Below, piece by piece: positions 42,580-61,523 of a stretch of DNA of 64,000 nucleotides. This DNA comes from Botrimarina mediterranea (GTDB lineage: Bacteria; Planctomycetota; Planctomycetia; Pirellulales; Lacipirellulaceae). The notes below the pieces were generated by a model. The model had not been told where the DNA came from, did no database searches, and worked only from the letters and a program-made list of their open reading frames with translations. Each line of letters opens with the position of its first letter. The first letter of the stretch is position 1. Made by a program: the position numbers and the translations under genes. Location of the stretch: assembly GCF_007753265.1 (NCBI RefSeq), contig NZ_CP036349.1, positions 2,699,363 through 2,763,362 of the forward strand, in the 5' to 3' direction.

Positions 42580-43242
42580 ATGGCCTGCGCTGCCCGTGTA
42601 TCCGTCACAACTGCTACAGCCAGACTCATGCCGTTCGCCTCGTCACTGTCGCTGCACCGCGCAATCGACTACGCGCTGCGGCTGCATGCTGCGGTTGAGC
42701 GTGGCGCTAGCCGCGATATCGCCCACGAGCAAGCGGTGCTCACAAACCTAGCGCTTGATACGCCCGGCTGCGACCTGCCGGGGCAGTGCCGAGGCGCCCG
42801 TTACGCGCTGGTTTGCTGGCTCGACGAACTGTTCACTTGCCACTCTCGCTGGGCCGACGCCTGGAACGAAGGCAAGCTCGAATCCACCCTCTACGGCGGC
42901 AATGACCGGGCGTGGGAGTTCTGGCGTCAGGCCAAGCTCGCCGACGCCGAACCCAACGACGATTCCCTTGCGGCCTTTTACTTGTGCGTTGCGCTCGGCT
43001 TCCGCGGCGAATTACGGAACCAGCCCGAGCGGCTCGCCGCTTGGGTCGAGAAGGCAAGATCACGCGTCGCTCGCGGCGCCACACCGGCCTCGCAAACGAC
43101 ACGGATCGCACGTCGATCCCGCCCCTCCAATCGGCTGTGGGGCAAGACCCGGCTCCGACGGTTCGTGACGTTTGCCACGATCGCTGCAACGGTGCTGCTG
43201 CCGCTAGCCGCCTTCGCCATCACACGGAGGGTGCTTGGCTAG
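42580..43242 (+). CDS. tssL: Type VI secretion membrane-complex protein TssL (DotU)
   Basis: 220 residues from the ATG at 42580; an ATG at 42628 is an alternative. DotU/TssL features: RAIDYALRLHAAVERG, CRGARYALVCWLDELFTCHS, WADAWNEGKLESTLYGGNDR, AWEFWRQAKLADAEPNDDSL and FYLCVALGFRGELRNQPERL. The single membrane segment is at the C-terminus (FVTFATIAATVLLPLAAFAI), as in TssL. No peptidoglycan-binding domain follows. It is followed at once by the tssM-like gene. Confidence 0.92.
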   Translation: MACAARVSVTTATARLMPFASSLSLHRAIDYALRLHAAVERGASRDIAHEQAVLTNLALDTPGCDLPGQCRGARYALVCWLDELFTCHSRWADAWNEGKLESTLYGGNDRAWEFWRQAKLADAEPNDDSLAAFYLCVALGFRGELRNQPERLAAWVEKARSRVARGATPASQTTRIARRSRPSNRLWGKTRLRRFVTFATIAATVLLPLAAFAITRRVLG

Positions 43243-43243
43243 C

Positions 43244-44749
43244 ATGATTGCCCTACTCAAGAAGATTGCCCTCGGTGTTATTAAGTCGGCCTTTACGCCA
43301 CTAGCGGGCGGTAAAGTGACGGGCGTCGCTCATGCGTTGCTCGTCGTCGTGACACTGGTAGGACTCTGGCAACTAAATCTGTGGTTGGGTCTTGACCAAG
43401 TGGTGCACGCTCCCTCCCGACTGGTGCGGGAATGGTGGCTGCCGCTGCTGTTCTTACTCAGCTACGGCTTGGTTTGGATTTCTCTCTGGACCTGGCGCGC
43501 CTTCAGCGAGCCGACAGCGGGTTCTCCGTTCCCCGATATCGATGACGCTTGGCGTGCCGTCGTATCAGCGATGGAACGCTGGGGCGCTGACCGCCGAGAC
43601 AAGCCGCTGGTCCTCGTCTTGGGCCAACCCTCGATGCGTGAGCAAGACCTCCTTTCAGCGCTGAGGGTGGCTCCGACGTTTGGGCCGGCGCCTTCAGCGT
43701 CTGGCGGGCCGTTGTGCGTCGTCGCCGATGACCGCGCTATCTACCTGATGTGCTCAGAAACGTCGCTGCTATCGCTCGGAACAGAGAAGCTGATTCAACG
43801 CCGCACTACGCAAAGCAGTCGGAAACTCACGGCAGCGGCTTCGGCGTTTGAAGCGACGATGCCCGCCGCCTTGCGTGTCGAAGCGAATGGTGACGACTCT
43901 ACCGGGACCGCCACGCTCGTCGCTCCGGCGATAACTCAGACACCGTTTGACGACTCCATCGCTGACGACCTCCCGTCGACGCCACTGTTTACCGATGAGC
44001 AGGCGTCTCGCTGCGCCGGCCGGCTCAGCCATTTGCTGCAACTCGTGGCCCGCGATCGTGAGCCAGGATTGCCGGTTGATTCGGCAGCGGTGGTTTTTCC
44101 CTGTGACGCCCTCGCCGACACCGACGCGACTGCCCAGATGGCGGACGCGATGCGGCAGGACCTTGCAGTTGTCGAAGAGGCCGGAGTGCGCTGCGGCGTC
44201 ATCGCGATCGGCGCTGACCTACAACACGTGCCCGGCGCCGGGCAGCTTTTGCACTTACTCTCCGCCGACCGCAAAGCTCGTGTCTACGGCGCCAAGCTGC
44301 CGCATGACGCCCTGACCTCCGAGTCGGCGTTGCGAGACGCGGTGGATTGGCTGACCGGAGTCGTGACGCCAACCCTCTGTCAGCGGCTGTTCCAGTTTGA
44401 TGAGGACGGCTTTGAGTCGTTGCCCGACAACGCGGCTCTGCACGCCTTCCAGAGTGAGGTGGGTCGCCGTGGCGAGCACTTGGCCAACTTGCTGACTCAG
44501 GGCCTCGATACCGGCAGCGGCGATGCCTGGCCGTGCGTGGGGACCTATTTGGTCGCTACTGGCGATCCCGTCGGTGGCAGCCAGGCGTTTGGAGCCGGAC
44601 TGTTAGATAGCCTGCTCGATTCGCCCGTACGCGCCGCCTGGACCAAGGAAGCCCTGCAGCGAGACGCGCTCGTGACCCGCAGCGTCGCCATCGGATACGC
44701 CGCCTTCGGCATCGCGACATTAACTGTCATCGGACTGCTTGCTTTCTGA
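43244..44749 (+). CDS. Short TssM-like (IcmF-related) membrane protein
   Basis: 501 residues from the ATG at 43244; a TTG at 43235 fits the GGAGG site at 43226 more closely and would overlap tssL by eight bases. Two membrane segments (about 30-50 and 65-85) precede a cytoplasmic domain, and a third hydrophobic segment (about 482-501) ends the protein. Position after tssL and the layout match the N-terminal half of TssM/IcmF. KPLVLVLGQPSMREQDLL stands where the Walker A motif is expected but has no GxxGxGK[ST]. The long periplasmic part of TssM, several hundred residues in Gram-negative model systems, is absent: the chain stops at the third membrane segment. Identity is inferred from position and topology more than from sequence. 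Confidence 0.75.
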   Translation: MIALLKKIALGVIKSAFTPLAGGKVTGVAHALLVVVTLVGLWQLNLWLGLDQVVHAPSRLVREWWLPLLFLLSYGLVWISLWTWRAFSEPTAGSPFPDIDDAWRAVVSAMERWGADRRDKPLVLVLGQPSMREQDLLSALRVAPTFGPAPSASGGPLCVVADDRAIYLMCSETSLLSLGTEKLIQRRTTQSSRKLTAAASAFEATMPAALRVEANGDDSTGTATLVAPAITQTPFDDSIADDLPSTPLFTDEQASRCAGRLSHLLQLVARDREPGLPVDSAAVVFPCDALADTDATAQMADAMRQDLAVVEEAGVRCGVIAIGADLQHVPGAGQLLHLLSADRKARVYGAKLPHDALTSESALRDAVDWLTGVVTPTLCQRLFQFDEDGFESLPDNAALHAFQSEVGRRGEHLANLLTQGLDTGSGDAWPCVGTYLVATGDPVGGSQAFGAGLLDSLLDSPVRAAWTKEALQRDALVTRSVAIGYAAFGIATLTVIGLLAF

Positions 44750-47123: not shown

Positions 47124-47566
47124 AGAATCGGCAACTTGCTATTCCGCCAATCCCATCCGTCGAGCACGCCCTGGCTCTGTTTGGGCGGGGTGATGCTCGG
47201 TTCTTTCGCTTGACGGCCTAGTAGTTCGGCTGCAAGTCGATGGCCGAGCGTCGGATCGATTGGCGGTGACGCGGGCTCGGCGGGAAGCGTCTCAGGCTTC
47301 TGTTGTGCAGCGGCCTGCTGCTTGGCGATCGCGGCCTTGTTGGCGGCAGCGAGAGTAGCGATCGCTTCTTTCTTGGCCGCAATCTGCCCCAGCGCAGACT
47401 GATTCGCCGTTAACAGCTGAGTCGCAATGTGAGCCGTGGTCCCAGCCAGCCGGGATAACTCGCTGCGCAAGAGCGGCTCCATCGGGCCACGCTGAGCCGT
47501 GGACAAATCTCGATGGAGTTCGTTGAGCGTCTTCAGGACGATGTCGATGGACTTGTTGGTGTTCAC
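47117..47566 (-). CDS. Small coiled-coil/Ala-rich protein in vgrG operon
   Basis: 149 residues from a GTG at 47566 with AAGGAGA eight bases upstream; the GTGA overlaps the stop of the DUF6931-like gene, so the two are coupled. Residues 1-100 are helical: NTNKSIDIVLKTLNELHRDL, ELSRLAGTTAHIATQLLTAN, QSALGQIAAKKEAIATLAAA, and NKAAIAKQQAAAQQKPET. The C-terminus is Pro-rich, ending RNSKLPILQ. I recognise no domain. It may be an adaptor or a chaperone for the spike genes; this comes only from its position. Confidence 0.65.
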   Translation of the reverse strand: MNTNKSIDIVLKTLNELHRDLSTAQRGPMEPLLRSELSRLAGTTAHIATQLLTANQSALGQIAAKKEAIATLAAANKAAIAKQQAAAQQKPETLPAEPASPPIDPTLGHRLAAELLGRQAKEPSITPPKQSQGVLDGWDWRNSKLPILQ

Positions 47567-48180
47567 TTCCAGTCTCCTTCGGTCCACAGGCTGGACCCGC
47601 GGAGTATCTCCGCTGCGATGCGGAGCGATTGGCGGAGCACCGCGTCTCGCTCGGCGGTGGACGGCGCCGCAGCCGCCATCAGCACGGCGTTCGCGGCTGC
47701 TTTGGCGGCTACTCCCGGCGGCGGCGGCACCTCGGGCTGCCCGGGCAGCGAGATACTCCCCTCGGCCCAGAAAGCCGCGGTTGCCGCCGCGCCCGCCGGC
47801 GTGTCAAAGCCCACGGTTTCGGCAGCGGCCTGCGCGGTGCGGCGCTTCGATTCCGTTGGATCAAAAACCCATGCGACAGCGGCGTCGATCGCCGCGGCAG
47901 TGGCGTCGCCTTCCAAAGGCGGCGATAGGCGTAGCAGGTTCCAAACACACAACAACGCCCACCACACCGCGCGACGTGGTCCGAGATACGCGGCGGCGAA
48001 ACGCGTTGCGTCCTCTAGCTGATTCGTCTCGACAAGACGGGAGAAGTAGGCGTCCGCCGTCTCATTCGAATCGGGCCTTGTCGTCCACGGCCCGGCTGCA
48101 GCCGCAGCGACACAAACGTCCTGTGCGGGCGGCGCCACGGTTGAGCTGTCAACTTCGGCGATAGCGGAGGCGGGTGGCAT
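47563..48180 (-). CDS. DUF6931-like protein
   Basis: 205 residues. The pattern ARFAAAYLGPRRAVWWALLC, followed by NLLRLSPPLEGDATAAAI and WVFDPTESKRRTAQAAAETV, is what I recall for DUF6931, a helical family found with type VI spike genes. The segment PAGAAATAAFWAEGSISLPG is also in that family. Biochemical role unknown. The gene lies 17 bases after PAAR on the minus strand and its stop overlaps the start of the small coiled-coil gene by four bases. Confidence 0.65.
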   Translation of the reverse strand: MPPASAIAEVDSSTVAPPAQDVCVAAAAAGPWTTRPDSNETADAYFSRLVETNQLEDATRFAAAYLGPRRAVWWALLCVWNLLRLSPPLEGDATAAAIDAAVAWVFDPTESKRRTAQAAAETVGFDTPAGAAATAAFWAEGSISLPGQPEVPPPPGVAAKAAANAVLMAAAAPSTAERDAVLRQSLRIAAEILRGSSLWTEGDWK

Positions 48181-48577: not shown

Positions 48578-50098
48578 TTAGTTGATCATCGTTACTGCGC
48601 CCTTGATGGCGGTTTGGCCGGAACCCTGGACGGCGACCATCGTGCCCTTGGCTTCGAAGTTCATGTCCGCTTGGTGCGTGACATTCATGCCTTTGGTGGT
48701 CTGCCCATTCTGGTCCACGGCGACGCTACTCGAGCCGCAGCTCATCGTCACGCCGGAGGTCGTGAGTTCGAGGCACGGTCCGCCGCCGGCGCCGACCGAT
48801 AGTTTGATGCCGGTCGAGGTCATCGAGATCAAAGCTCCCGAGCCTTCGGCGCCGACCGATAGCTTCATCCCGTCGGGCGTCATCTCTACTTTGCTGCCCG
48901 TGTCGCCGCCGGTGTTGACGGTGATCGTCCCTTGTTGGCCGGTGGTGATGTCAATCTGCCCGGTTGTGCCGGCACGCCGGACCTGCATCGCGGCGGGGCC
49001 GCAGACGATCGTCGCTTGGCCGGTCGAGTTGATCGCGACAACGCCGTTGTCTTGGCCGTCGGCGCCGTGGGCGTCCAGATGGATCAGTGACGCATCGGTG
49101 TCGCTGTCTTCGGTCGCTCTCGCTCGCAGAGAGATATGCCGCGCCCCGGTCGCTAGGAGTCCGTCGTAACACTGATACTGGTCGGCCTCGTCGGAGCCGA
49201 ACTTCATGTCACTCGTGTCGGGCCCGTTTGCCGCGGCCTCGGCGGCCGCGGCGTCGGCTGCGGGGTCGTCTTCCGTCGATTCTTCCGATGAATCATCACT
49301 CTCAGCAGAGTTCTCAGCGTCATCGACCGAGGTGTCCTCGGAGTTCGCTTCGGCTTCTTCGGCAGCCTTGTCCGCCTCGCCTGCCGCCGTGAGTGACGCC
49401 CCTTGGTCGGTTGCTTTTGACGCCAAGTTGAGCACTAGCGACGAGTAGTCCGATCCCAAGGCGCCGGCGTGGTCGTTGAGACTGCTCGCTTCGGACTGCT
49501 TCTCTAAGCCCGCATCGCATTCTCCAGTCGCCTTCTCAAACTCGATCAGCAAGTTAAGCAGCATGCCGCTTACCCCCCGCGGGCCGAGCGACCGCACGAG
49601 GTTCTCCCACGCGACAGGATCGCTGTCTTGCTTCTTCCATCCAAGCAGTGTCAGCGCCGACGCCGCTGTAACGATCCCTGCTACGAAATAGGTCCGAGGA
49701 TTAGCCTCATCGAAGGTCTGCACGCCACGCCGTGTGATCTCAGCGCCGTGATGGATCGATAGCGAGGGACCGTAGTGCAGAGAACGTTGTGGACCGAAGA
49801 CGCCCGACCAGTCGCCCATCGGCGCCAGCAGGTCCTGGGCCTGCTGGAGAATGCCGTCATCGACAAGGCTCGTTGGGTCAAGCACCAGAGACATCGAGCC
49901 GCCGGTGACGATCTCACTCGTCGAACCCGCCGGCCAGCCGCCGACAATCGACGCGGCGTGCCCGAGGGTGACATCGATTGCCGCCTCATATCCCCTGGAA
50001 AGGCAGGCCGACCGCCAGTTCTTCGTGGCGGATGTCGGTTGCCCATTAAGGTTGGCGAGTTTCGGCGCGTCGGATTCCTGTTCCGCAGCTTCAGCCAT
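48578..50098 (-). CDS. Separate VgrG-tail-like protein with acidic linker
   Basis: 506 residues. Residues 1-235 are unrecognised; a hydrophobic stretch at 136-153 (YFVAGIVTAASALTLLG) could be a membrane segment. Residues 241-295 are an acidic Ala/Glu/Asp/Ser linker. Residues 330-506 show repeated short beta units like the triangular beta-helix of VgrG tails: GQIDITTGQQGTITV, SKVEMTPDGMKLSVG, GALISMTSTGIKLSVG, CLELTTSGVTMSCGSSS and VAVDQNGQTTKGM, ending GTMVAVQGSGQTAIKGAVTM. The gene is directly after a vgrG whose own end is short. It may complete the spike needle, or be an effector delivered on it. Confidence 0.8.
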   Translation of the reverse strand: MAEAAEQESDAPKLANLNGQPTSATKNWRSACLSRGYEAAIDVTLGHAASIVGGWPAGSTSEIVTGGSMSLVLDPTSLVDDGILQQAQDLLAPMGDWSGVFGPQRSLHYGPSLSIHHGAEITRRGVQTFDEANPRTYFVAGIVTAASALTLLGWKKQDSDPVAWENLVRSLGPRGVSGMLLNLLIEFEKATGECDAGLEKQSEASSLNDHAGALGSDYSSLVLNLASKATDQGASLTAAGEADKAAEEAEANSEDTSVDDAENSAESDDSSEESTEDDPAADAAAAEAAANGPDTSDMKFGSDEADQYQCYDGLLATGARHISLRARATEDSDTDASLIHLDAHGADGQDNGVVAINSTGQATIVCGPAAMQVRRAGTTGQIDITTGQQGTITVNTGGDTGSKVEMTPDGMKLSVGAEGSGALISMTSTGIKLSVGAGGGPCLELTTSGVTMSCGSSSVAVDQNGQTTKGMNVTHQADMNFEAKGTMVAVQGSGQTAIKGAVTMIN

Positions 50099-50126: not shown

Positions 50127-51929
50127 TTACTTAGGGAAGCCAAACAGCGATCCGCACACGCTTATCGAGCTGCCTAGCACATAGCTGTGCTCGCTCTGCT
50201 CGTTCTTCTTGACGGAATGCCCCTCGGACTGAATCTCAAGATGTTCGTTATAGAGTTCATCGTGGAAAGTGATGCCGTTGTACTCGGACGTCGGGTTGCC
50301 CTGGATGCTGCATGATCGCACGCCTGCGACGTCCTGCTGCCGCGGCATCTCCATCGGCGGCAAATTCTTCGCGTTGTAAACGCTGCCGACGATGATCGGG
50401 CGGTCGGGGTCCCCGTGCTCGAAGGCGACAAGCACTTCGTTGCCATGCCGAGGCCAGAAGAAGGCGCCCCAGCCCGCGCCGGCCCAGAATTGGGCGACCC
50501 GCACCCAACACGAACGATTCGTCGGGCCGACGGCGCCATCCGGTTGCTCGCCTTCGACGACAGCCTCCGCCCGGCGGTCCCACGGAAACCGGATCTTTAC
50601 GCGGCCGTACTTGTCGTAGAGTTGTGTCTTGAGTTTGGTGATGTCCGCCTCGCTCTCGGTGAGGTCGGCGACCACCCACGCCGATTGGACACCATGGATT
50701 CGGGGCTTAGGCGTCACCTGGCGGGGACGATACGGCGTCGCCTTCGGCCAGCAGTAGAACTCGTTCTCGTAATGCAACGCTTCGTCATCGGGTGACGCGT
50801 AAGCGCCGCCAACCTTCAGGTCGTGGAAGATACGCGTCACCACATAGTCGGTGTCGGCGTTGAAGTGCCCCGACAGGGTGAAGGCGCCCCCCGGCGTCAG
50901 CGCCAAAGCGTCGCTCCCGCCGTCGATCGAGATCGCCTCGGCGGTAAGCAAATCGCAGACACGTTGCGCTTCCCGCTCGGCGTCCGCCCGCATATTGGAC
51001 AGGGCGTCTTTGCCGACGCCATCGGCGCCTGGGTTCTGTTCTTTCGTCCCGACGCCGTCGTACCGCACGGTGTAGCCGCTTCCGTAATCCAGGAGCGCGT
51101 GTTCCGTCCCGTCGGGCGGCAGCTTGTGCGTCGATGCGCCCAGCGACAGCGTCGCCGCTACCTTGCGAGTTGCTTCAAAGGGATCGCGTGGCGCCTGAAA
51201 ATGCGTGTCGCGGAAGGTGATGCCCGTCGGCGCTAGCGCTTGAGTCTTTCGCCAACGCTTGACCGCCGGTTTGTCTTGAACACCGCCATCCGTCGGGCGG
51301 TATTCGAGCGGCGCGAGGTCCGCTCCGACGGCAGCCTGCGTCGAGTCGTCGCAGAGCACCATCGTGTGCTTCTTCTCGTCATGCTCGAAGTAATAGAAGA
51401 TGCCTGCCTCTTCCATCAATCGGCTTACGAACGCAAAATCGGTCTCGCCGTACTGCACCCGGTAGTTGTGGGGCAGCCGCTCTTCGGCGTGCGTGTACGC
51501 TGTTTTCTTCTCCTCAATGCCGGCGAGCAACTCCTCAAGGATGTCGTCAACTTTCATATCTTGGAAGATGCGACAATTGCTCTGTAAAGCGAGCCGCGCC
51601 AGTTTGGGTTGCACCAAGGCGGCGTAGTAGGAAAAGTTGTCGTCGCGGCCCGACTGCGTGAACGCCGTGACGACGCCATTCCAGTAGCGGGTTGTCTGGC
51701 CGGGGAGATCAACCGTGACCGTCATCGATTTGCCGAGGACTTCGGAGAAATCGATGTCGTCCGCTTCGCTGAGAAATGTCAACTCGATCCGGAACGGCTC
51801 GGACAACGCCTCGATGCAGCGCATCGAGGTCGCGATCAGCGGCGAGTCGAGCGACGACGACACGCGCAGCACGCGGCCCTTGTCGCTTAGCGTGTACTCG
51901 GTGGCTCCACTCTCGGCGGCGTCGGACAT
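50127..51929 (-). CDS. vgrG: Type VI secretion spike protein VgrG (TssI)
   Basis: 600 residues. The gp27-like part is clear: CIEALSEPFRIELTFLSEAD, YAALVQPKLARLALQSNCRI, FQDMKVDDILEELL, YRVQYGETDFAFVSRLMEEA and GIFYYFEHDEKKHTMVLCDD. The gp5 OB-fold follows: YDKYGRVKIRFPWDRR, CWVRVAQFWAGAGWGAFFWP, RHGNEVLVAFEHGDPDRPII and VGSVYNAKNLPP. After ITFHDELYNEHLEIQSEGHS the chain ends within about 35 residues, with SYVLGSSISVCGSLFGFPK, so the long beta-helix needle and DUF2345-type tail are missing. The tail-like protein is encoded 28 bases downstream. It is first in the spike operon, divergent from the giant caspase-like genes. Confidence 0.95.
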   Translation of the reverse strand: MSDAAESGATEYTLSDKGRVLRVSSSLDSPLIATSMRCIEALSEPFRIELTFLSEADDIDFSEVLGKSMTVTVDLPGQTTRYWNGVVTAFTQSGRDDNFSYYAALVQPKLARLALQSNCRIFQDMKVDDILEELLAGIEEKKTAYTHAEERLPHNYRVQYGETDFAFVSRLMEEAGIFYYFEHDEKKHTMVLCDDSTQAAVGADLAPLEYRPTDGGVQDKPAVKRWRKTQALAPTGITFRDTHFQAPRDPFEATRKVAATLSLGASTHKLPPDGTEHALLDYGSGYTVRYDGVGTKEQNPGADGVGKDALSNMRADAEREAQRVCDLLTAEAISIDGGSDALALTPGGAFTLSGHFNADTDYVVTRIFHDLKVGGAYASPDDEALHYENEFYCWPKATPYRPRQVTPKPRIHGVQSAWVVADLTESEADITKLKTQLYDKYGRVKIRFPWDRRAEAVVEGEQPDGAVGPTNRSCWVRVAQFWAGAGWGAFFWPRHGNEVLVAFEHGDPDRPIIVGSVYNAKNLPPMEMPRQQDVAGVRSCSIQGNPTSEYNGITFHDELYNEHLEIQSEGHSVKKNEQSEHSYVLGSSISVCGSLFGFPK

Positions 51930-52185: not shown

Positions 52186-55100
52186 ATGAGACAAGACGCC
52201 AACCACGCCAAACGTCCCGCCCCCCGTTGCGCCGAGGTAGCTCGAGTCGAGTTACTTCGCCGATGGCGCGTCGGCATTGGAGTCGCTGGCGCGTTCCTCT
52301 TCGCCGCTGGAGTGGCATGTCTTGCGGTCTTGCTAAGTCCGCCGGCCAGGGTGAATCTCATCGCCGTAGGCGCCGACTACGCTGCCAACCTATCCGTGCC
52401 TCACAACGCACACGGTTGGCGCGGCCTGCGAGGCCTTTGCGACTATGCCGTATCGACGTCCGACGCCTTTCGGGGCCGATCACTTCTAGACGCCGCTGCT
52501 GCGCCGCTCGTCGCGGATGACGAGTTCACATGGTCCGACGCCGTCGGCCTCATGGAGGAACCAGGCGCGCTGCTGCTCGTTTCGCTGCACGGCGGCGCTG
52601 ACGAAAAAGGCCCTTACTTGCAGAGGGAGGCATGTGCGCCCGGCGAGGATCCAACCCGGCGATTGTATGTTGCCGACCTATTGCACGAGTTACGTAAGCT
52701 TCCAACTTCGCTACCCAAGATTGTCGCCTTCGACGCAACGATGTCCCCCGGTTCATTGCGCTACGGCGAAGCCGGGAACGAGTTTGCAGCAAGTCTCCGT
52801 TCTCTGAACAGCGAGATAGAGGCGATCCCTGGTTTGTTGGTCGTCAGCTCGAGCGACATCGGCGAACAGTCGTGGCGTTACGGCGACTACGGCTCTACCG
52901 CATTTACCGAGTCGCTACTTGCAGCACTCCGTGGCGCGGCGAACGACACCGACTCAGACGGGCGGCTTAGCATCCAAGAAATACTAGCAAAGGTATCGAG
53001 TCAGCTTCAACAGAACGCGACTACGATCGGAAGGACGCAAACGGTGCTGAGGCTTCCTCTCGGTGAAATAGGCCTGAGCCGATCTCGGCAAGTCGAGATT
53101 GCTATTGCTAATCCCGGCTACACGCCGGCGCCGACGCCGGTGGCTAGGGAGCTTCCCAAGGCCGAACTCCTGGCTAACTGGGCCGGTATGGCGGAGGTCA
53201 CAGCGCATCTGCCAAACCCCGAATCAAGCTCCACCCTAGCGTGGCGTCGTTACCGAGGGTTGCTGATCCGGCGTGAACAACTGCTGACAGCAGGCGCAAT
53301 CGAAGCCGCCCAGCGTGTTAATGACGAGATCGGCGACACACAGGCACTTCTACTCGAGGCGAGCCATGCAAGTGATTGCTGCGATGGACCGGTCGAGGCC
53401 AATCGCGCCGCTACGGGCGACCCTCTGCGAGGACTTGTCACTGCCGCATTTGCGGAACTCTGGCCGGCAGCGGGCGTTAACCACCATGTCGTGGCCGCGC
53501 GCGTCTTTAGCGAAGTTCCCGTATCCGAGCTCCCAGCGTTGCGGCACGGGTTGCTCGACCGCGTTGTCGAGACGGTGGCCGACGATCCCCAGGGACGTCT
53601 CCTTCACGGCGCTGCGCTGGTGGAAGCGTTGCACGACCCGCTGACGCCGCTTCCCGCCGAAGCCCATCTGCTGTCGGTTTTAGCTGAAGGACTGCCGAGC
53701 GACCTCTCGGCGGCATCGTGGCGTGAGGCGTTGCGGCTAGCAATCGAGACGCGACGGCTTTCGACGGCGCCTTTCACACCGGAGAGCTTGGATCAATTGC
53801 CCTACACCGCTGAGCTGTTTCCTTGGTTACAAGGTGGTTTTGCTGAGGCGGACCGAGCTCGCCTCAAAGGAGAGGATTTGCTCTTCGTCGGTGAGCCAGA
53901 ACTCCAAGCAGCCATCGTTTCACTCCAGAAGGCAAAAAAGCTCTACGAAGCGTTGTTGAGCGACGCGCAGACCGTGCGTCGATCTCTGAGAGTTCGGGAT
54001 ACAGCCTACAACGTACTAGGGTTCTATACCGACGCTACCGAACGTCTCGTTGCGACCTCGCCAGCGATTGCCGAAGAGATCGCCGAGATTACCAACCAAG
54101 CCATCGTTGCGCACCTTGCAATAGGCGAACTCAGCGACATTCTTTTGTCGGTAGAGATCGGCAATCGGGCGCCATCGATTGCCTTGCAAGAACTGACTTC
54201 CAAGACAGAGATTGCATCGAAGGCAGTCGAAGGATTGCGTGATGAGTTCCGACACTTCCGGAGCCGCCTGCTCACACGCACCGGAGCCCCATTGGAGCTC
54301 AATCGTGAAGCGGCTTTAGCGGTCCCCGACATCGAAGTCGCCGAGCGGATCCGCCTGCTATCGTCCGTGACGCCGACAGTTCAAAGCGACGTTATGGAAA
54401 GCATCAACGGAAAGGAAGGGATTCATCACGAGCTGGAAATTGGTGAACGCTCACGACGAGCAAGGCTTGCACTTGCCATTGTTGGTAGACGCGTCTACGA
54501 ACGCGCCGTCGAGGGGCGGGATGTCTACCAAGACACTGTCCGTGCCGTCACGCAGGATGTCGACGCCGCCAACCAAGCGACAAGAGCCTGTGCGTCGCTG
54601 ATGATATCAGCGCTAAACGACTCTCGCGCGTTGAGCGAGATTGTCGTCGATAGTGGAGCTGATGAAGCTCACCGCCAGCGCGTCGTCCGGGCGGCGGCCG
54701 CATTACGTCGCTTCGCCGGAGCCGCCGCGCAGAATCTTCCACCATCACTGCTCGAGGAAGTGCGTCGCGTCGGCCGCTACGACTATTTGCTTTGGGAGGC
54801 AGAACGTTCGCTGAGCGAACTCTGGAGCGACGCGCAGCCCGGCGAAGGTCCGCGATTTCAGTCGCTGGCTATGGCGTACTTGGGTGCTGCCGATCGTCTC
54901 ATCCCCGGCCGCGAGTCAACCGATCGACTTGCCGCTGTTGCGAGCCAGCCACTGGTGTGGAAGCTGAACGCCCCTGCATCAGTAAACCTCGTGTCGTCCG
55001 TCGCGCCGGCTTTCTCGTTGAAGATCGAGGCTTCTGACTCGCCACTTGGCCATGATGCGGACGGCGTCGCGGCCGTGAAGCTCAGCATCCCGGAGGGCTA

Positions 55101-57087
55101 TGCGCTGATCGGAGCCGCAACGAATTGCCGCCGGGGCGTTGCAATACAACCGGGTGCGGGGCTAGCCGAGAATGCGGTTGTCGTCGGGCATACTGGCGAC
55201 ACCGTGGACATCGCCTCGCAGAGCGACTTGCGGCTTAGTGGCTGGTTCCGCGGCAGTCAGTTCGAATCGACGGTGACCCTCCGAAATCTTGCAACACCTA
55301 CCGCCGAGTTTGTCGATGCGCCACGCCGTCCAGGCGCTGGGGTAGCGATACTCGATACTCGAGCCGAAGCGGATAACGCTGCTGACGGCGCTATCGCGAT
55401 CGTGCTGGACGCCTCAGGGAGCATGGGGCCTGGAGACGAAGCGGCCTCGAAGTATCGCCAAGCCGTCGTCACACTCGAGTCCTTGCTGCGTGATCTTCCG
55501 ACAGGTGTTCAAGTCAGCGTCTGGGTCTTCGGCCAAGCGGTTGGTGGCGATAAGACAACCGATAAACCCGAAGGGACGATCGTCCGTGTGATCGATCCAG
55601 TCCGCTGGAACCCTGCCGATAAGGCTCAGTTGCAGGACGTGATGCGCGAGCTCGCCTATCCCCGCATCGAGCCTTGGAACGAATCGCCGCTCGTACGCGC
55701 CATGCTGATGGCAAGCCGTGATCTGCGCAGTGCCGCGGGCTACAAGTCGGTGATCGCCATCACCGATGGTGTCGATAACCGTACCGCCGGAGACGCATAT
55801 GCCAACCCAATGAATCTTCCACTTGACGCGTTGATGCGTGAGGAGCTTTCGGGCGCCGGTGTCTCGGTACAGGTGATTGCGTTTCGGGTCGATGTCCCCG
55901 AACAGACCGCCGCACGGCAGCAGTTCAGCTTTCTCAATCAACTTTCCCCCGCGGGCAGATGGTGGGAAGCTAGCGAGACCTCCGAATTGGAGCGGATGCT
56001 GCGGCAGGCCTTCGAAGAGAGCCAGACGACGCCACTCTACACCGCCAGCGCGACGGCGCTTCGGGGCCCCGCGGGCGTTGCGACAGTATCCAATGGCCTC
56101 CACCCATTGACTTGGCCATCGGCTCCAGTGCCCGAGGGGGTTTACGATCTCCCCCGTCTCACGAACGACGCAACGCCGCAGAAGGCGCTCCTTTCCGACG
56201 GAGACTTGTTGTTGTTGGCTGCCCGTCAGACGACAGGTGGCCTCTACTTGTCGTCAAAGAGCTTCTCCGCGAATCAGCCACTGACGCAGCCGGCGATTGA
56301 GACGGCCGGTTGGCGGGCCGCTGTGCTCTGCGATCGGCTGCTTCCCAACGGAGACCGCTCCACGCTGGTCTGCATTGAAAAGCAGCCAGATTCGCAACCA
56401 ATGCCGATGCTGAAGTTGGAGAGGCCCGCCGCGGTTTGGTTCGAGGCCAGCGACGACCCCGCACAACGTCTGCGTTGGCGACGCCTGGATGGCTACCCGG
56501 CCCCGTGCTGGGAGGTCGAATGGCCTGCAGGCTCGGCGACAGGAAAACTAGCCGTCTGGTGGGCCAAGGCGAATGCCCCGACCGCGAACGTCGCCGTCCG
56601 ACCCGACCTGCTGCGGCGAGAGCTGGTGGACTTTGTTGGGCACTCATGGCGACTCGACGGCGAGTCCATCGTGCTAAAACGACTCGCTATCGAGACACAG
56701 CGACTGCCCGACGCACGCGGCGAAATTGTCGAACAGCCATGTCTTGTCGTCGAGCTACGCGGTGCGATTCGCTGCCTTACGCGGCTGCAAGGATATTCAA
56801 CTGCGGGGCAACGCCAGCAGTGGTTCGATGAAGCGCAGGCCTCGGTGGCGACCTTCTGGCCGGTGACTGCCGAGTCGCTTGGCGGCGCAGTCGAAGGAAT
56901 CGAGCTGATAGCGGCCGCAACCTTGAAGCAACAAGCTGAGTCCGCGGGGCGAACCGCCTTGTTTAAGGAGGGACCCGCCCCATCGACAGAGGACTACCGC
57001 CCGATCCCCGTAGTGGATTGGTTCAACACGGCGCCCACCGGACGCCCCGCAAGTGATGCTCGCCGCGTCGAATGGAGCGTCCGATGA
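52186..57087 (+). CDS. Giant membrane-anchored pseudo-caspase with vWA domain
   Basis: 1633 residues from the ATG at 52186; a longer frame to 52036 starts at a GTG. One membrane segment lies at 29-50 (VGIGVAGAFLFAAGVACLAV). Residues 55-280 look like a caspase (peptidase C14) fold: LLLVSLHGGADEKG at 129 with H135-G136 in place of the His-Gly dyad, KIVAFDATMSPG at 178 where the catalytic Cys of the DAC motif is Thr185, and GLLVVSSSDIGEQSWRYGDY followed by STAFTESLLAALRG. Residues 290-1060 are mostly helical without a known domain. A von Willebrand A domain begins near 1069, with the MIDAS motif D1075-A-S-G-S (IAIVLDASGSMGPGD), and covers about 200 residues. The remaining 360 residues are unrecognised. 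It is coupled by ATGA overlap to the next gene. Confidence 0.8.
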   Translation: MRQDANHAKRPAPRCAEVARVELLRRWRVGIGVAGAFLFAAGVACLAVLLSPPARVNLIAVGADYAANLSVPHNAHGWRGLRGLCDYAVSTSDAFRGRSLLDAAAAPLVADDEFTWSDAVGLMEEPGALLLVSLHGGADEKGPYLQREACAPGEDPTRRLYVADLLHELRKLPTSLPKIVAFDATMSPGSLRYGEAGNEFAASLRSLNSEIEAIPGLLVVSSSDIGEQSWRYGDYGSTAFTESLLAALRGAANDTDSDGRLSIQEILAKVSSQLQQNATTIGRTQTVLRLPLGEIGLSRSRQVEIAIANPGYTPAPTPVARELPKAELLANWAGMAEVTAHLPNPESSSTLAWRRYRGLLIRREQLLTAGAIEAAQRVNDEIGDTQALLLEASHASDCCDGPVEANRAATGDPLRGLVTAAFAELWPAAGVNHHVVAARVFSEVPVSELPALRHGLLDRVVETVADDPQGRLLHGAALVEALHDPLTPLPAEAHLLSVLAEGLPSDLSAASWREALRLAIETRRLSTAPFTPESLDQLPYTAELFPWLQGGFAEADRARLKGEDLLFVGEPELQAAIVSLQKAKKLYEALLSDAQTVRRSLRVRDTAYNVLGFYTDATERLVATSPAIAEEIAEITNQAIVAHLAIGELSDILLSVEIGNRAPSIALQELTSKTEIASKAVEGLRDEFRHFRSRLLTRTGAPLELNREAALAVPDIEVAERIRLLSSVTPTVQSDVMESINGKEGIHHELEIGERSRRARLALAIVGRRVYERAVEGRDVYQDTVRAVTQDVDAANQATRACASLMISALNDSRALSEIVVDSGADEAHRQRVVRAAAALRRFAGAAAQNLPPSLLEEVRRVGRYDYLLWEAERSLSELWSDAQPGEGPRFQSLAMAYLGAADRLIPGRESTDRLAAVASQPLVWKLNAPASVNLVSSVAPAFSLKIEASDSPLGHDADGVAAVKLSIPEGYALIGAATNCRRGVAIQPGAGLAENAVVVGHTGDTVDIASQSDLRLSGWFRGSQFESTVTLRNLATPTAEFVDAPRRPGAGVAILDTRAEADNAADGAIAIVLDASGSMGPGDEAASKYRQAVVTLESLLRDLPTGVQVSVWVFGQAVGGDKTTDKPEGTIVRVIDPVRWNPADKAQLQDVMRELAYPRIEPWNESPLVRAMLMASRDLRSAAGYKSVIAITDGVDNRTAGDAYANPMNLPLDALMREELSGAGVSVQVIAFRVDVPEQTAARQQFSFLNQLSPAGRWWEASETSELERMLRQAFEESQTTPLYTASATALRGPAGVATVSNGLHPLTWPSAPVPEGVYDLPRLTNDATPQKALLSDGDLLLLAARQTTGGLYLSSKSFSANQPLTQPAIETAGWRAAVLCDRLLPNGDRSTLVCIEKQPDSQPMPMLKLERPAAVWFEASDDPAQRLRWRRLDGYPAPCWEVEWPAGSATGKLAVWWAKANAPTANVAVRPDLLRRELVDFVGHSWRLDGESIVLKRLAIETQRLPDARGEIVEQPCLVVELRGAIRCLTRLQGYSTAGQRQQWFDEAQASVATFWPVTAESLGGAVEGIELIAAATLKQQAESAGRTALFKEGPAPSTEDYRPIPVVDWFNTAPTGRPASDARRVEWSVR

Positions 57088-60000
57088 CACAGCAAACTCC
57101 CGCAACGAACTCACGAAGTCTTTTTGCTTGGTTGCTCGCCGGGGTCGCGGCGGCGCTCGTCGGCGTGCTGGCGGCGGTAGTGCTTTGCCTTCAAACAATG
57201 GAGCATCAGCAGCTAATTGCTTGCTGGACGGATCATCTCCACACGCCGCTCATCGCCGATAATCTAGCCGCTCGTAACGACAAGCAGTCGCTCTGCGCCG
57301 CCGCGTACTTCGACGTCCAAGGGACATCGATCGACGCGCTAGCGAAAGGCCTCGTCGATCAGCACGCCGACTCGCAAGTGATTTACATCAGCGCGTACGC
57401 AACGCGCGGTCGCGATGGCGAGGTGCTGCTGCTTACGGAAGACTTCGATCCCTTAACGGCTCGCAACGGAGTCGCTTTCGAAGCCTTGCTTCGGCGCATC
57501 GAGTCGGACCCGACGCCCAAGTTGCTGGTGCTCGACCTGTCATGGGAACTTGCCGAGGGGTTGGCCGGCATGCTGCCATGCGACATTGGTCGAGAGGTGC
57601 ACGAGCGGCTCCGGGCGACGCCTCTCAAGAACTGCCTGACGCTCGTCAGTTGTGCTGCCGGAGAATCGCCGACACGGATCGAAGGCGTTGGGCGAACAAC
57701 TTTTGGATACTTCTTCGAGATGGGTCTCGCCGGCGCCGCGGACAGCTGCAACGAATCGCATATCACCGATGGCCGGGTTACAGCTCTAGAGTTAGCTAAC
57801 TACGTCACCGAGCGTGTGACACGCTGGTCGCGACGACACGGCGCCGAGACGCAGAGCCCAAAGACCTACCACCATGGTGATACCGATCTCACCTTGGCGC
57901 CTGCACGCCGTGCTGAGCTAGTTTCGGCAAAATCCCAAACGCCCGAGCCCTATCCAGACTGGCTCGTCGAAGGATGGCGGAGGCGCGATAGCTGGAAGGC
58001 CAGCGGTGAGGCCTTCGTGATTCCACGGCTTGTCAAACGCTACGAGGCTGAGCTTATCGAAGCCGAAAGCCGCTGGCGATGGGGAGTCATCGCAAACCAC
58101 AGTGAGCGTTGGGAAACCAATTGCCGCACGGTTCTGCAAGAGATTGAGTCTGCCCAAAAGCGACTCGCCGCCACCCCTGTTGTATCGCTTGCCCAATTGA
58201 CAACGCCTGCGAATCAAGACTACTTACAAGCTTGGCTGGCTTGGTTTGCGGCGACCGACAAGCAAGCGGCAGCCGGAGTGTTCTCATCAGCCGTTGACGG
58301 CGCTAGCTACACGGACCTCGCCCAGGCGGCGGCGCTCGCGATCGCCGAATCGGGAGAGCAACTGCGCGACGGCCTGATCATTGCTACTGACGAGTTGGCG
58401 CGACGGTCTAGCTCGCCGCACTTCATTGAAGTCGCCGACCTCCGGATGCTAGCCGAAGTCGCTAAAAAGCGGTCCGACGCCGAGACCTCAACGCTCGCCG
58501 AGTTCTTGCGGGTGGCGACGCTGCGATCTCAGGTCGGCGCCGACTATGACTTGCCAGCGGCGCTCGTAGCGGAGCTCGACATCGCCAATCAGAATCGACA
58601 ATCGGCATGGGCGGCGCTGGTTTCGCCGGGTTTCGCGTCACTGAACGACGCCCGAGCGTATAACCGTCAAGCGATGCGGGGCTATCAAGCGATCGTCTCT
58701 CGCCAGCGGCTCTACCACCGGGCGCAACTATCCGTCGATCGCGCGCTCGATACCCTGCCGTCGATGGCGCCACTGCTGAGAGTCTTGTCCAGAGACCGTA
58801 ACGATTGGACCGCCGCCTTAAGGTACACGGACCAACTGCTCTCAATGCTGCAAGCGAAAACCGGTCAGAACGACGACGCCATTGACGCGACCACTGGGCG
58901 GCTTGAGCAACGATTGGAGCGACTGACACAGATTGCCAGCGTCGAAGCCGTGGCGCTGCTCGCTGACGAAGTCCGGGATGGCGACGCAAAGCGAGCGCAG
59001 TTGGCGGACGCCTTACTCGCCACGCCGTTGCTCGCGGCAGATGAGAGGGCGACGCTAGTTTCCGCCCTTCGTGAGGCCGCGGCACAGACGGCAGCGTTGC
59101 TGTACGCCTTTGCCCACGAGCCGCACGGCGTCGAAGCTAGCAATGGATTGCCCCCGAGTTTCCAGGAAGCAACTCGGACTGAGGATCTGGCGAAGTGGGA
59201 GGCCGAGATGGCTCTGGCCACGCTTCGGCTCGCACGCCTCTCGCAGGTGGGGCCCAAGCGGGTATCCGATGCCCTCTGCTCACCTGCCGAGCTACGCATG
59301 GCGATCAAGGACGCCCAAGTCGCTGACCTCAGTAGATTGTCTCCGTCGGAATTGCGTTGCGCTTGCTTCGTGCTGCCGCCGCGTCCTTTTCAGCCGCTCC
59401 TCGACAAACAAGAGCAGACTCCGACCCTTGTGGGCGAGATTGCGCAACGAGAAGCATGGGCCCGTCGCTACGCATCCCGCATCTTCGACGCGGCGAAAGA
59501 CTTGCAGGCCCCATCGCCTTACCTAGACCTCGCCCGCCGCCTCGATGCTAACGTTGCGACCAAGACCGCATGGCTGAGGGTAAATGGCGCGACAGATGGG
59601 ACCCCAGTTTCGCTCGCCGGCTTCTCTTCAAGCGAGCCGACCGTGTCGTTGCCGGTGCGGGTCGATCACTCGGCGGACGAATCCCCAATCATTGAAGTGT
59701 TGCAGCCCGCCGATTGCCTTCGGATTCGCCAAGAAGTGCGACGCGTGCCCTCAGGGTCGGAGGTGCAGCTCACTTTACAGCTCCGAGACGATGCAACCGT
59801 CGTCCAGCAACTCGCGACCCACGGTGTGCTGCTGCGGGTCCGACGCGGTGACGTAGTGACGCATCGCCGAATCGCCACCCCCGGCGTTGCGTCAGTATCG
59901 CCCGTCGAGCTACTGGTCGAGATCGCCGGTGTAAGTATCCCGTGGAGTGACCGGATCGAATTGCCGCCCACGTCAGGCCCGACGCCGCTGCGTCTCATTG

Positions 60001-61523
60001 CGGTGAATCATTCCGACCGATGCATCTCGCTGCAAGCTGAAGTAGACACGGGCGTTACGCTGCACGCGGAGACGCAAATCGAAGCTGGTTCAGAGAAGCC
60101 GTTGATATTTGCGCCATTGGCGCCGCCCGCCGAAGGCGCCGCAACGGCGGAAGTCCTCCCCTCGCTTGCAGTGACGCTCCGTGATGGCGCCGCCGAGCTG
60201 ATGAAGGGGACGGCGGTTCTCGGAGTAGCAGAACCCGCCTCGTACCTCCGTCTTCGTGACGCACGCTACGTTAACGACGGCGTGACGGCGCCACGGTTGA
60301 GATTCATCGTCGAACGGCTCGAAGCGTCGCCTAGCCCCATCAGCCTGCTCTGGACCGTAGCGAACGAACGAAGCCAGCGTGGACCCGTCGTACGAGGTGG
60401 AACGCTCGCCGCTACTCTCACCACCGACTCGCCCGTGGCGACGCTGGAGGCCGAAGTGGCGACAGGCATCGGATCGCTCCAGAAATTGAACGCCGTCGCC
60501 ACGATCAACGGCGTCGTCGGCGCCCTGACATTCACTAGCGACAGTCAAATCGGTACGCGCTCGTCGGTGCTCAAGCGGTCGACGAAACCGATTCTACAGC
60601 TAGTCGCCCCCACAATGATCGCGTCGGGATCACCACTGCCGTACTCAATCGATACGCAATCGACTCCGAAAGGAGTGAAGCTCGAGGTGACGCTCGTTCC
60701 GGCGAGCTCCAGCGGATCGGCGCTGTCCGCGGCAACGCACCGCTATCCGACGGCCCGTCGGCACGCCGTCTCGATGACGGCGCCGAGCAAGCCCGGTGAT
60801 ATGACGGTCGTCAGCACGATTGGTGCGTGGGACGGGGAGTTCGATTCGATGGGCCTATCGGGCCATTGGCGAGTGGTTGCCGTCGCTATCGATGAGGACG
60901 GCGTCATTGTCGCTCGCTCAAACGCCGAGGTCATGATTGACGGTGAGGCGCCGAGCCGGGTCGATTTGACGACACAGACGCCGTTGGTAGCCGGCAAACC
61001 GGCCGGGTTTCGTATCGATGCGGCGGACGACCTTTCGGGTGTTGACTCGGTTCGTCTCTACCTCGGTTATCCTATCGAGAACGCCCCACCCGCCGACGCC
61101 AAGCCGATTGTCGCCGCACCGCTGGCCGGCGAACCCGGCGCTTGGTCGGCGGCGCTGCCGATGCCGGCGGCGACGACAGCGGTCGTCACCGTCGAGGTGA
61201 CCGATCGCGTCGGCAAGGTTCGCAACAAGACACAGCAGCTTGTGCTAATCGACGAGGCAACTGCTGCTCTGGGGAGTGTCGCGGGAACCGTCGTCGAGGG
61301 CGTGTTGCCCCAGCCGAACCTGACGGTCGAACTCCGTGACCCACAACAACAGCCGGTGGCGTCGTCTAAGACGGACGCGAAGGGCGCCTTTCACTTCGCC
61401 GGCGTGAAGCCCGGCAAGTACCTCGTGTGGAGCATCAAAGCGGCGTCGCAACGCGTTGACGCCGCCGCCGTCGATGTCCAGGCGGGCGCCGAAGCGAAAG
61501 TCGACCTGCGGCTATCGTTCTGA
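57084..61523 (+). CDS. Second giant membrane-anchored pseudo-caspase with C-terminal Ig-like domain
   Basis: 1479 residues from the ATG at 57084, whose ATGA overlaps the previous stop by four bases. One membrane segment lies at 12-36 (SLFAWLLAGVAAALVGVLAA). Residues 40-245 resemble the caspase-like part of the upstream protein: VIYISAYATRGRDGEVLLL at 99 has Ala in place of the His-Gly dyad, and LLVLDLSWELAEGLAG at 147 has Ser-Trp instead of a catalytic Cys. FEMGLAGAADSCNESHITDG and RVTALELANYVTERV continue the pattern. Residues 250-900 are helical. Several beta-rich segments follow, and the last 85 residues (about 1395-1479) look like a carboxypeptidase-regulatory-like or SpaA Ig fold (DAKGAFHFAGVKPGKYLVWS). 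No vWA domain is seen. Function unknown. Confidence 0.78.
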   Translation: MTQQTPATNSRSLFAWLLAGVAAALVGVLAAVVLCLQTMEHQQLIACWTDHLHTPLIADNLAARNDKQSLCAAAYFDVQGTSIDALAKGLVDQHADSQVIYISAYATRGRDGEVLLLTEDFDPLTARNGVAFEALLRRIESDPTPKLLVLDLSWELAEGLAGMLPCDIGREVHERLRATPLKNCLTLVSCAAGESPTRIEGVGRTTFGYFFEMGLAGAADSCNESHITDGRVTALELANYVTERVTRWSRRHGAETQSPKTYHHGDTDLTLAPARRAELVSAKSQTPEPYPDWLVEGWRRRDSWKASGEAFVIPRLVKRYEAELIEAESRWRWGVIANHSERWETNCRTVLQEIESAQKRLAATPVVSLAQLTTPANQDYLQAWLAWFAATDKQAAAGVFSSAVDGASYTDLAQAAALAIAESGEQLRDGLIIATDELARRSSSPHFIEVADLRMLAEVAKKRSDAETSTLAEFLRVATLRSQVGADYDLPAALVAELDIANQNRQSAWAALVSPGFASLNDARAYNRQAMRGYQAIVSRQRLYHRAQLSVDRALDTLPSMAPLLRVLSRDRNDWTAALRYTDQLLSMLQAKTGQNDDAIDATTGRLEQRLERLTQIASVEAVALLADEVRDGDAKRAQLADALLATPLLAADERATLVSALREAAAQTAALLYAFAHEPHGVEASNGLPPSFQEATRTEDLAKWEAEMALATLRLARLSQVGPKRVSDALCSPAELRMAIKDAQVADLSRLSPSELRCACFVLPPRPFQPLLDKQEQTPTLVGEIAQREAWARRYASRIFDAAKDLQAPSPYLDLARRLDANVATKTAWLRVNGATDGTPVSLAGFSSSEPTVSLPVRVDHSADESPIIEVLQPADCLRIRQEVRRVPSGSEVQLTLQLRDDATVVQQLATHGVLLRVRRGDVVTHRRIATPGVASVSPVELLVEIAGVSIPWSDRIELPPTSGPTPLRLIAVNHSDRCISLQAEVDTGVTLHAETQIEAGSEKPLIFAPLAPPAEGAATAEVLPSLAVTLRDGAAELMKGTAVLGVAEPASYLRLRDARYVNDGVTAPRLRFIVERLEASPSPISLLWTVANERSQRGPVVRGGTLAATLTTDSPVATLEAEVATGIGSLQKLNAVATINGVVGALTFTSDSQIGTRSSVLKRSTKPILQLVAPTMIASGSPLPYSIDTQSTPKGVKLEVTLVPASSSGSALSAATHRYPTARRHAVSMTAPSKPGDMTVVSTIGAWDGEFDSMGLSGHWRVVAVAIDEDGVIVARSNAEVMIDGEAPSRVDLTTQTPLVAGKPAGFRIDAADDLSGVDSVRLYLGYPIENAPPADAKPIVAAPLAGEPGAWSAALPMPAATTAVVTVEVTDRVGKVRNKTQQLVLIDEATAALGSVAGTVVEGVLPQPNLTVELRDPQQQPVASSKTDAKGAFHFAGVKPGKYLVWSIKAASQRVDAAAVDVQAGAEAKVDLRLSF

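What the first reader, a model, noticed from the sequence alone, without database searches (positions are those of the whole stretch)
52186..61523. Two coupled giant membrane-anchored pseudo-caspases beside the VgrG operon
Both proteins start with one membrane segment and a caspase-like fold. In the first the His-Gly remains but the catalytic Cys is Thr; in the second both sites are lost. The first adds a vWA domain with an intact MIDAS motif and the second an Ig-like end. Their large size and pairing suggest a structural or sensing role, not proteolysis. I know of no described type VI component of this kind.
Basis: partly seen in the sequence, partly recalled or inferred. Interest (0 to 1): 0.85.

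Follow-up and report, generated by a model that had tools for sequence, protein, structure and literature searches.

The report
Dead-caspase giants in planctomycete type VI
Two giant membrane-anchored proteins with worn-out caspase domains accompany nearly every type VI secretion machine examined in this group of planctomycete bacteria, where a standard envelope-spanning part of the machine is missing, so they are good candidates for its replacement.

Summary
P0001 (52186-57087, 1633 aa) and P0002 (57072-61523, 1483 aa) overlap by 16 nt. Each has one N-terminal membrane segment and a caspase-like domain. P0001 keeps His135 but has Thr185 at the Cys site; P0002 has lost both. P0001 adds a long helical region and a vWA domain with conserved MIDAS; P0002 adds Ig-like domains and a C-terminal CarboxypepD_reg domain. 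A model of P0001 (pLDDT 85) matches MALT1 paracaspase and vWA structures.

Of 246 genomes of the order, 59 have such giants (>=1300 aa); 57 of these have TssC. In most clusters read, a pair lies beside tssK-tssL-tssM or vgrG-DUF6931. Scorable giants lack the intact His/Cys dyad in 48 of 52; complete small caspases of the same order keep it in 7 of 7.

The new point: TssM here ends after its last membrane helix. IcmF_N open frames are <=822 aa in the class (76 of 76) but >=1051 aa in 54 of 56 from other classes; IcmF_C is found in 0 of 74 T6SS genomes of the class against 20 of 51 outside. The pair most likely supplies the missing periplasmic part. That step is inferred; membership in the T6SS is strongly supported.

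The parts
52186..57087 (+). P0001, 1633 aa, giant membrane-anchored pseudo-caspase with vWA domain (P1-type)
   Evidence: ORF; full-length orthologues in 13 of 246 genomes of the order (own included), all 13 TssC-positive
52276..52332 (+). transmembrane segment, residues 31-49, N side positively charged (8 K/R, 3 D/E)
   Evidence: hydropathy
52348..53085 (+). caspase-like domain, residues 55-300; His135 kept, Thr185 at the Cys site
53158..54945 (+). long helical region, about residues 325-920
   Evidence: AlphaFold2 model of residues 50-1249, mean pLDDT 85.1
55366..55980 (+). vWA domain, residues about 1061-1265, conserved MIDAS
   Evidence: PF13519 E 1.7e-5, 25.8 bits, just under the Pfam cut-off of 27; conservation; Foldseek vWA hits
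57072..61523 (+). P0002, 1483 aa, giant membrane-anchored pseudo-caspase with Ig-like and CarboxypepD_reg domains (P2-type); overlaps P0001 by 16 nt
57132..57188 (+). transmembrane segment of P0002, residues 21-39
   Evidence: hydropathy
57219..57896 (+). caspase-like domain of P0002, residues about 50-275; Tyr109 and Ser157 at the catalytic sites
   Evidence: profile comparison
59619..61241 (+). beta/Ig-like domains of P0002, residues about 850-1390
   Evidence: model of residues 46-1245, mean pLDDT 83.4; Foldseek Ig-like hits; residues beyond 1245 were not modelled
61278..61514 (+). CarboxypepD_reg (PF13620) domain of P0002, residues 1403-1481
   Evidence: 33.3 bits, over the Pfam cut-off of 32.3
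43235..44749 (+). short TssM, 504 aa: IcmF-related N domain, ends after the last membrane segment (residues 484-502)
   Evidence: PF14331 29.9 bits; alignment A3 of 9 short TssM; hydropathy
42580..43242 (+). TssL (DotU)
   Evidence: PF09850 E 9e-19
33307..34776 (+). TssK
   Evidence: TIGR03353 E 2.5e-78
34828..42395 (-). core tss genes, in minus-strand order TssA, TssB, TssC, Hcp, TssE, TssF, TssG
   Evidence: TssC by TIGR03355; the other names rest on my reading of the ORFs and on conservation in relatives
50127..51929 (-). vgrG, divergent from P0001
   Evidence: TIGR03361 E 1.8e-124
48578..50098 (-). detached VgrG extension; fused to VgrG in four relatives
47563..48180 (-). DUF6931 protein, found beside vgrG and the pair in many relatives
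   Evidence: PF22011 E 2.8e-42

Best explanation
The two proteins are core parts of a lineage-specific T6SS membrane complex. SHOWN by computation: an N-terminal membrane segment; P1/P2 pairing; co-occurrence with T6SS and, in most clusters read, a place beside tssK-tssL-tssM or vgrG; a degenerate catalytic dyad beside a conserved vWA MIDAS; a TssM without its periplasmic part in this class, whereas TssM is long in other classes of the phylum. INFERRED: TssL and the short TssM still hold the baseplate at the inner membrane, while the 1400-1600-residue ectodomains of P0001 and P0002 stand in the periplasm. There the dead caspase domain serves as a binding platform at the membrane, the helical region as a stalk, and the vWA and Ig/CarboxypepD ends as contacts between subunits or with wall or outer membrane. 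Together they do the job of the TssM periplasmic arm, and perhaps of TssJ, building or gating the channel. Provenance (inferred): an ordinary bacterial caspase was taken over and lost catalysis.
For: Co-occurrence: giants >=1300 aa in 57 of 70 TssC+ and 2 of 176 TssC- genomes of the order. For the other 13, giants >=1300 aa turn up in 4 (G154, G205, G208, and G194 where the frame is broken), partial frames in 5, none in 4. Adjacency: P2-type, short tssM and P1-type consecutive in G350; in G381 and G437 short tssM lies between a P1-type giant and a 1604-aa frame without a profile hit; vgrG-DUF6931-P1-P2-tssM-tssL-tssK in Singulisphaera sp. GP187, with one small gene between; 22 of 39 within 25 kb. 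TssM: open frames <=822 aa in 76 of 76 in the class, >=1051 in 54 of 56 outside; IcmF_C in 0 of 74 against 20 of 51 outside, 15 of them over the curated cut-off; E. coli control positive. N-terminal anchor in 60 of 62 giant ORFs examined (one giant counted twice). Dyad lost in 48 of 52 scorable giants. Giants cluster by machine type on a tree (5 changes against a shuffled mean of 12.8, 0 of 500 as low; labels mine). Parallel: the Bacteroidota T6SS membrane complex also uses a vWA protein (TssR) and a PKD protein (TssP) (PMC10781749, passages); canonical TssM has about 750 periplasmic residues (PMC4256274, passages).
Against: No interaction, localisation or mutant data. Foldseek names no TssM, TssJ or TssR in the best 50. 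In 8 of 39 genomes the giants found lie >400 kb from any TssC/TssM gene listed on the same contig: five of these sit beside vgrG (G049, G107, G172, G209; G040), but in G140, G221 and G245 the 20 kb read holds neither tss nor vgrG. Four TssC+ genomes of the order show no giant (G099, G139, G216, G230); in G139 the contig ends in tssK, but in G216 about 20 kb around tssK-tssM were read. Two genomes have giants without TssC (G159, G244; 88% and 80% complete). TssJ absence was not tested. TssM of the anammox relative Kuenenia, which has the pair, was not seen. IcmF_C was not detected in 31 of 51 outside genomes either, so frame length carries the argument. Counts are not corrected for shared ancestry.
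Confidence: 0.6

Rival explanations
1. The pair is an envelope sensor or trigger that regulates T6SS firing rather than a structural part: the vWA MIDAS or the Ig/CarboxypepD end binds a ligand or a neighbour cell, and the pseudo-caspase relays the signal to TssM.
For: vWA MIDAS strictly conserved; one genus keeps both His and Cys (4 of 33 P1-type). From memory, not from a call: the proteobacterial T6SS kinase PpkA has a periplasmic vWA domain.
Against: No kinase or other signalling domain was found in the window pair. Presence in nearly all machines examined in the order, and the match with TssM truncation, fit a required part better than an accessory sensor.
Confidence: 0.2
2. They are envelope assembly, wall-crossing or VgrG-loading factors tied to vgrG: they ready the wall or help the spike, and something else unseen replaces the TssM arm.
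For: In the window's own lineage the pair travels with vgrG even when the tss core is on another contig or >400 kb away.
Against: In many other lineages the pair sits beside tssK-tssL-tssM. Known spike chaperones are, as far as I recall, cytoplasmic, whereas these carry an N-terminal membrane anchor.
Confidence: 0.12
3. They are secreted or surface effectors or adhesins delivered by the T6SS, lying beside vgrG as cargo.
For: vgrG neighbourhood; vWA and Ig-like domains are common in adhesins (established knowledge).
Against: An N-terminal anchor in 60 of 62 ORFs; no toxin domain found in the window pair; a recurring P1/P2 pair rather than variable cargo; clustering by machine type.
Confidence: 0.05
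4. The link with T6SS is only phylogenetic: giant caspase proteins are general planctomycete envelope proteins that happen to be common in T6SS-bearing genera.
For: A few giant caspase ORFs exist without TssC (G159, G244; G334, G326, G348 with frames of 1420-1735 aa). G358, outside the class, has TssC, a long TssM and a 1416-aa frame with a weak caspase match near its end. G140, G221 and G245 have giants with no tss or vgrG gene in the 20 kb read.
Against: 2 of 176 TssC-negative genomes of the order have giants against 57 of 70 positive ones; physical adjacency. Within family f1, full-length pairs occur in 6 of 36 genomes, and all 6 have TssC.
Confidence: 0.03

Closest known systems
Canonical T6SS membrane complex TssJ-TssL-TssM
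   Same: TssL and the cytoplasmic, membrane-embedded part of TssM are present in the window and in relatives
   Different: TssM stops after its last membrane helix; IcmF_C in 0 of 74 T6SS genomes of the class; a pair of giants accompanies it; TssJ not tested
Bacteroidota T6SS-iii membrane complex TssN-Q-O-P-R (PMC10781749; abstract and passages seen)
   Same: A lineage-specific periplasmic set in place of the canonical one; TssR carries a vWA domain and TssP PKD (Ig-like) domains
   Different: There tssJ, tssL and tssM are all lacking, whereas here TssL and a short TssM remain; no caspase-like domain was mentioned in the passages seen; homology was not tested
Prokaryotic caspases, Pfam PF00656 Peptidase_C14
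   Same: Fold and the surrounding sequence motifs
   Different: Catalytic His and/or Cys lost in 48 of 52 scorable giants; N-terminal membrane anchor; 1430-1920 aa in those scored
EACC1-associated caspases and caspase-vWA conflict systems (NCBIfam NF047832; PMC7159879 seen in listing and abstract start only)
   Same: A weak NCBIfam hit on P0001 210-276 (19.3 bits against a cut-off of 140)
   Different: No other match to those systems in the window pair; found in T6SS context; pseudo-enzymes

Membership tests
Type VI secretion system (machine) | Conserved core genes tssB, tssC, tssE, tssF, tssG, tssK, hcp, vgrG in one cluster | tested here: met
   Curated models for TssC, TssK and VgrG and TssL; the rest by my reading and conservation in relatives
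Canonical TssM (IcmF) | Cytoplasmic IcmF N domain between membrane helices | tested here: met
   PF14331 29.9 bits in the window protein; 64 of 70 genomes of the order. The genome-wide search missed the window's own copy
Canonical TssM (IcmF) | Large periplasmic part (about 750 residues, PMC4256274) with IcmF_C | tested here: not met
   504 aa, ends after the last helix; IcmF_C 0 of 70 and 0 of 4
Canonical T6SS membrane complex | TssJ outer-membrane lipoprotein | not tested
Caspase peptidase C14 | Caspase fold | tested here: met
   P0001: Foldseek MALT1, prob 1.00, TM 0.65 over caspase domain 3v4o_A, hhalign. P0002: by profile only; its Foldseek list shows no caspase
Caspase peptidase C14 | Catalytic His-Cys dyad | tested here: not met
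   P0001 H135/T185, P0002 Y109/S157
vWA domain with MIDAS | DxSxS, Thr/Ser and Asp metal site | tested here: met
   D, S, S each 36/36; Ser/Thr and Asp 31/31 of rows not trimmed there; Pfam score just under its own cut-off
T6SS-iii membrane complex (TssNQOPR) | Homologues of TssN, Q, O, P, R | not tested
   Only the vWA and Ig-like resemblance from passages of PMC10781749
PpkA-type T6SS regulator (kinase plus vWA; recalled) | Ser/Thr kinase domain in the vWA protein | tested here: not met
   No kinase hit in P0001 with Pfam or NCBIfam

The most novel reading that the evidence does not exclude
Planctomycetes of this class run a third kind of T6SS membrane complex, besides TssJLM and the Bacteroidota TssNQOPR: the TssM periplasmic arm (and perhaps TssJ) was lost and replaced by two giant single-pass envelope proteins built on a domesticated, catalytically dead caspase fold, one with a metal-binding vWA domain and one ending in Ig-like/CarboxypepD domains.
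Probability: 0.5. Interest if true: 0.9.

Novelty: new variant of a known kind. Interest (0 to 1): 0.82.

Why it matters
How T6SSs outside Proteobacteria and Bacteroidota cross the envelope is, as far as I know, open. Here a whole lineage has a TssM cut off at the membrane and a conserved pair of giants that goes with the cut. That makes the question testable with two genes, would give a second case in which the periplasmic part of the complex is replaced, and shows a caspase fold reused, catalytically dead, beside a secretion machine.

Tried and rejected
Close-relative scan of genome contigs with P0001 alone found nothing; with profile A1 it returned 31 loci from a capped list, of which five (L178-L182) hold giants; I also read L183 (a 758-aa vWA ORF) and set the other 25, matched over the vWA region only, aside unread. 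PF00656 in the own genome: no match, so the giants are beyond that model. PDB sequence searches with P0001, P0002 and A4: nothing. Foldseek with the P0002 model gave mostly Ig-like or noise hits. Rejected: effector/cargo (anchor, pairing), active protease in general (dyad lost in 48 of 52), purely phylogenetic link (adjacency).

Limits of the counts: one search scored only the two best candidates per genome at E<=1e-10, so it can miss giants. Open frames are the tool's stop-to-stop frames and some are cut by contig ends. The dyad and anchor counts cover only giants in loci that I fetched. Six of 58 giants could not be scored for the dyad. A 1144-aa ORF with an intact C-terminal caspase beside a giant and vgrG in G102 is left out of the giant counts because it is under 1300 aa. 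Two of nine 'small' rows are ends of giants cut by a contig or locus edge and are left out of '7 of 7'. One giant seen in two overlapping loci (L116/L117) was dropped from the dyad count but not from the anchor count; 5 of the 62 ORFs there also show a hydrophobic stretch further on. In some searches I transcribed numbers by hand, and added the window's own TssM position. IcmF_C missed 31 of 51 outside genomes although TssM frames there are mostly long. The single/tandem labels are mine, from TssC counts, and approximate; the tree has long branches and weak deep forks. The three two-T6SS genomes used there are of one genus, so they are one case, not three.


Full report
OBSERVATION. In the 12 full-length orthologue pairs that I measured elsewhere the two are adjacent, -4 to 76 nt apart. 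P0001 has a membrane segment at 31-49 and P0002 at 21-39; in P0001 the N side is rich in K/R, so the bulk should be periplasmic (prediction by hydropathy only). Pfam sees vWA (just under its cut-off) and CarboxypepD_reg, and NCBIfam gives a faint caspase hit on P0001.

CASPASE FOLD. P1-type domains from 20 giants (A4) align by hhalign to seven ordinary caspases of the order with E 1e-26, and P2-type domains (17 rows) to P1-type with E 4e-39. The giant of G332 passes the PF00656 cut-off; of the other six giant domains tried in that call none did, while the two small caspases passed it easily. AlphaFold2 on P0001 50-1249 gave pLDDT 85.1, pTM 0.76; Foldseek's best hits are MALT1 paracaspase (E 2e-4; TM 0.65 over the isolated domain 3v4o_A), and a metacaspase and vWA domains follow. 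The P0002 model (46-1245, pLDDT 83.4, pTM 0.69) hits mostly Ig-like domains and no caspase in the best 50; its caspase fold rests on the profile match.

DEAD ENZYME, LIVE MIDAS. Of 58 giants >=1300 aa in the loci fetched, plus the window, 52 could be scored and 4 keep both His and Cys, all of one genus (G049, G107, G119, G122); the other 48 have lost one or both. Small caspases of the same order keep both in 7 of 7 complete cases. The vWA metal site is conserved in every row covered.

LINK TO T6SS. In 59 relatives (own genome included), 8 have nearly full-length P0001 homologues, the same 8 have the P0002 homologue next to it, and all 8 have TssC, which occurs in 17 of 59. In 246 genomes of the order, giants >=1300 aa occur in 57 of 70 TssC+ and 2 of 176 TssC- genomes (Fisher p about 2e-40, not corrected for ancestry). 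Of the 13 TssC+ genomes without one, reading fetched tss regions or search rows showed giants in G154, G205, G208 and (broken frame) G194, partial frames in G160, G214, G004, G070, G083, and none in G099, G139, G216, G230. Two giants, often with a HEAT-like gene between, lie beside tssK-tssL-tssM in G145, G156, G220, G241, G090, G174, G169 and G152, and beside vgrG in the 13 genomes of the window's lineage and in G075 and G085. In G350 the order is P2-type, tssM, P1-type; G381 and G437 have a 1604-aa frame without profile hit, tssM and a P1-type giant. Named carriers are Singulisphaera sp. GP187 (vgrG-DUF6931-small gene-P1-P2-tssM-tssL-tssK), a Gemmataceae MAG in which P2 is broken, two Planctomycetota MAGs and a Candidatus Kuenenia stuttgartiensis MAG. 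Where the giant's contig also has a listed TssC or TssM gene, 22 of 39 genomes have it within 25 kb and 30 of 39 within 60 kb; 8 are beyond 400 kb, five of these beside vgrG and three (G140, G221, G245) with neither tss nor vgrG in the 20 kb read.

GIANTS FOLLOW THE MACHINE TYPE. G152, G169 and G191, all of one genus, each have two T6SSs. Their P1-type giants form two separate clades, each with SH-aLRT 100, that group across genomes and not within a genome; the second giant lies away from the second T6SS, so which giant serves which machine is inferred, though in G152 and G191 a further giant-like frame begins beside tssK of the second cluster. Over 38 labelled rows, labels for single or tandem tssC, assigned by me, cluster on the tree (5 changes against a shuffled mean of 12.8, 0 of 500 shuffles as low).

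THE MISSING TssM ARM. The window's TssM is 504 aa and ends after its last membrane segment, as do the eight others aligned. IcmF_N open frames are 291-822 aa in the class (76 frames) and 633-1620 aa outside it, 54 of 56 being >=1051. IcmF_C was found in 0 of 70 TssC+ genomes of the order and 0 of 4 of the class outside the order, and in 20 of 51 TssC+ genomes of other classes, 15 over the curated cut-off; E. coli, the control, rings. In the literature the TssM periplasmic part is about 750 residues and its end, which binds TssJ, is needed for function (PMC4256274, passages). So either these machines work without a periplasmic arm or something replaces it. The giants have the right predicted topology, size, neighbours and distribution.

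HOW IT WOULD WORK. TssL and short TssM dock the baseplate; P0001 and P0002 ectodomains form the transperiplasmic part or its gate. I give 0.9 that the pair belongs to the machine and 0.6 to the replacement role. The Bacteroidota system offers a parallel: there tssJ, tssL and tssM are lacking and TssN-Q-O-P-R, with a vWA (TssR) and PKD domains (TssP), form the complex (PMC10781749, abstract and passages). Planctomycetes are said to have an unusually wide periplasm (recalled), which would call for long parts.

KNOWN OR NEW. None of my searches of the held library listed a paper that by its title or abstract start concerns planctomycete T6SS membrane complexes or caspase-like T6SS parts; I saw listings (some capped), and passages of five papers (PMC3482391, PMC13373197, PMC4793230, PMC10781749, PMC4256274). 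The library lacks most subscription journals and preprints.

NAMES. The genome tools give kinship without names; that the order is Pirellulales and the class Planctomycetia is my inference, not a tool result. 'Class' here means what the tool calls same order or same class.

Noticed in passing
window 48578-51929: VgrG is split in two genes here (hub/spike 50127-51929 and an extension 48578-50098) and in the nearest relative G001, but is one ORF of 1114-1159 aa in G005, G007, G015 and G018.
   Followed up: partly
L116:8925-10877, L135:3659-5212, L149:7235-8788, L170:7551-12062: ORFs matching both TssB and TssC profiles in one frame (517-1503 aa), apparently fused sheath proteins, in several planctomycetes.
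   Followed up: no
L067:9544-14097: A 1517-aa ORF in G040 with a TssC-like part followed by a TssA part.
   Followed up: no
L070, L111, L114, L134, L142 and others: Two tssC genes in tandem in many relatives, a second T6SS type beside the single-tssC type of the window.
   Followed up: partly
window 44756-45715 (-) and e.g. L109:4647-6182, L112:5564-7267, L119:11692-12744: A HEAT-like protein lies next to short tssM in the window and between the two giants in many other clusters; a candidate further part.
   Followed up: no
window 47563-48180 (-); L062, L066, L102-L104, L182: DUF6931 genes, often two in a row, accompany vgrG and the giants; the paper library holds no paper naming DUF6931.
   Followed up: no
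L068:3206-11566: Three caspase genes in tandem in G040, all with intact His and Cys, not T6SS giants.
   Followed up: no
L066, L102, L103, L104: The P0001 orthologue of one genus keeps both His and Cys, so it may still be active or be the ancestral state.
   Followed up: partly
L132:9781-13215: A 1144-aa ORF with an intact C-terminal caspase next to a giant and vgrG in G102.
   Followed up: no
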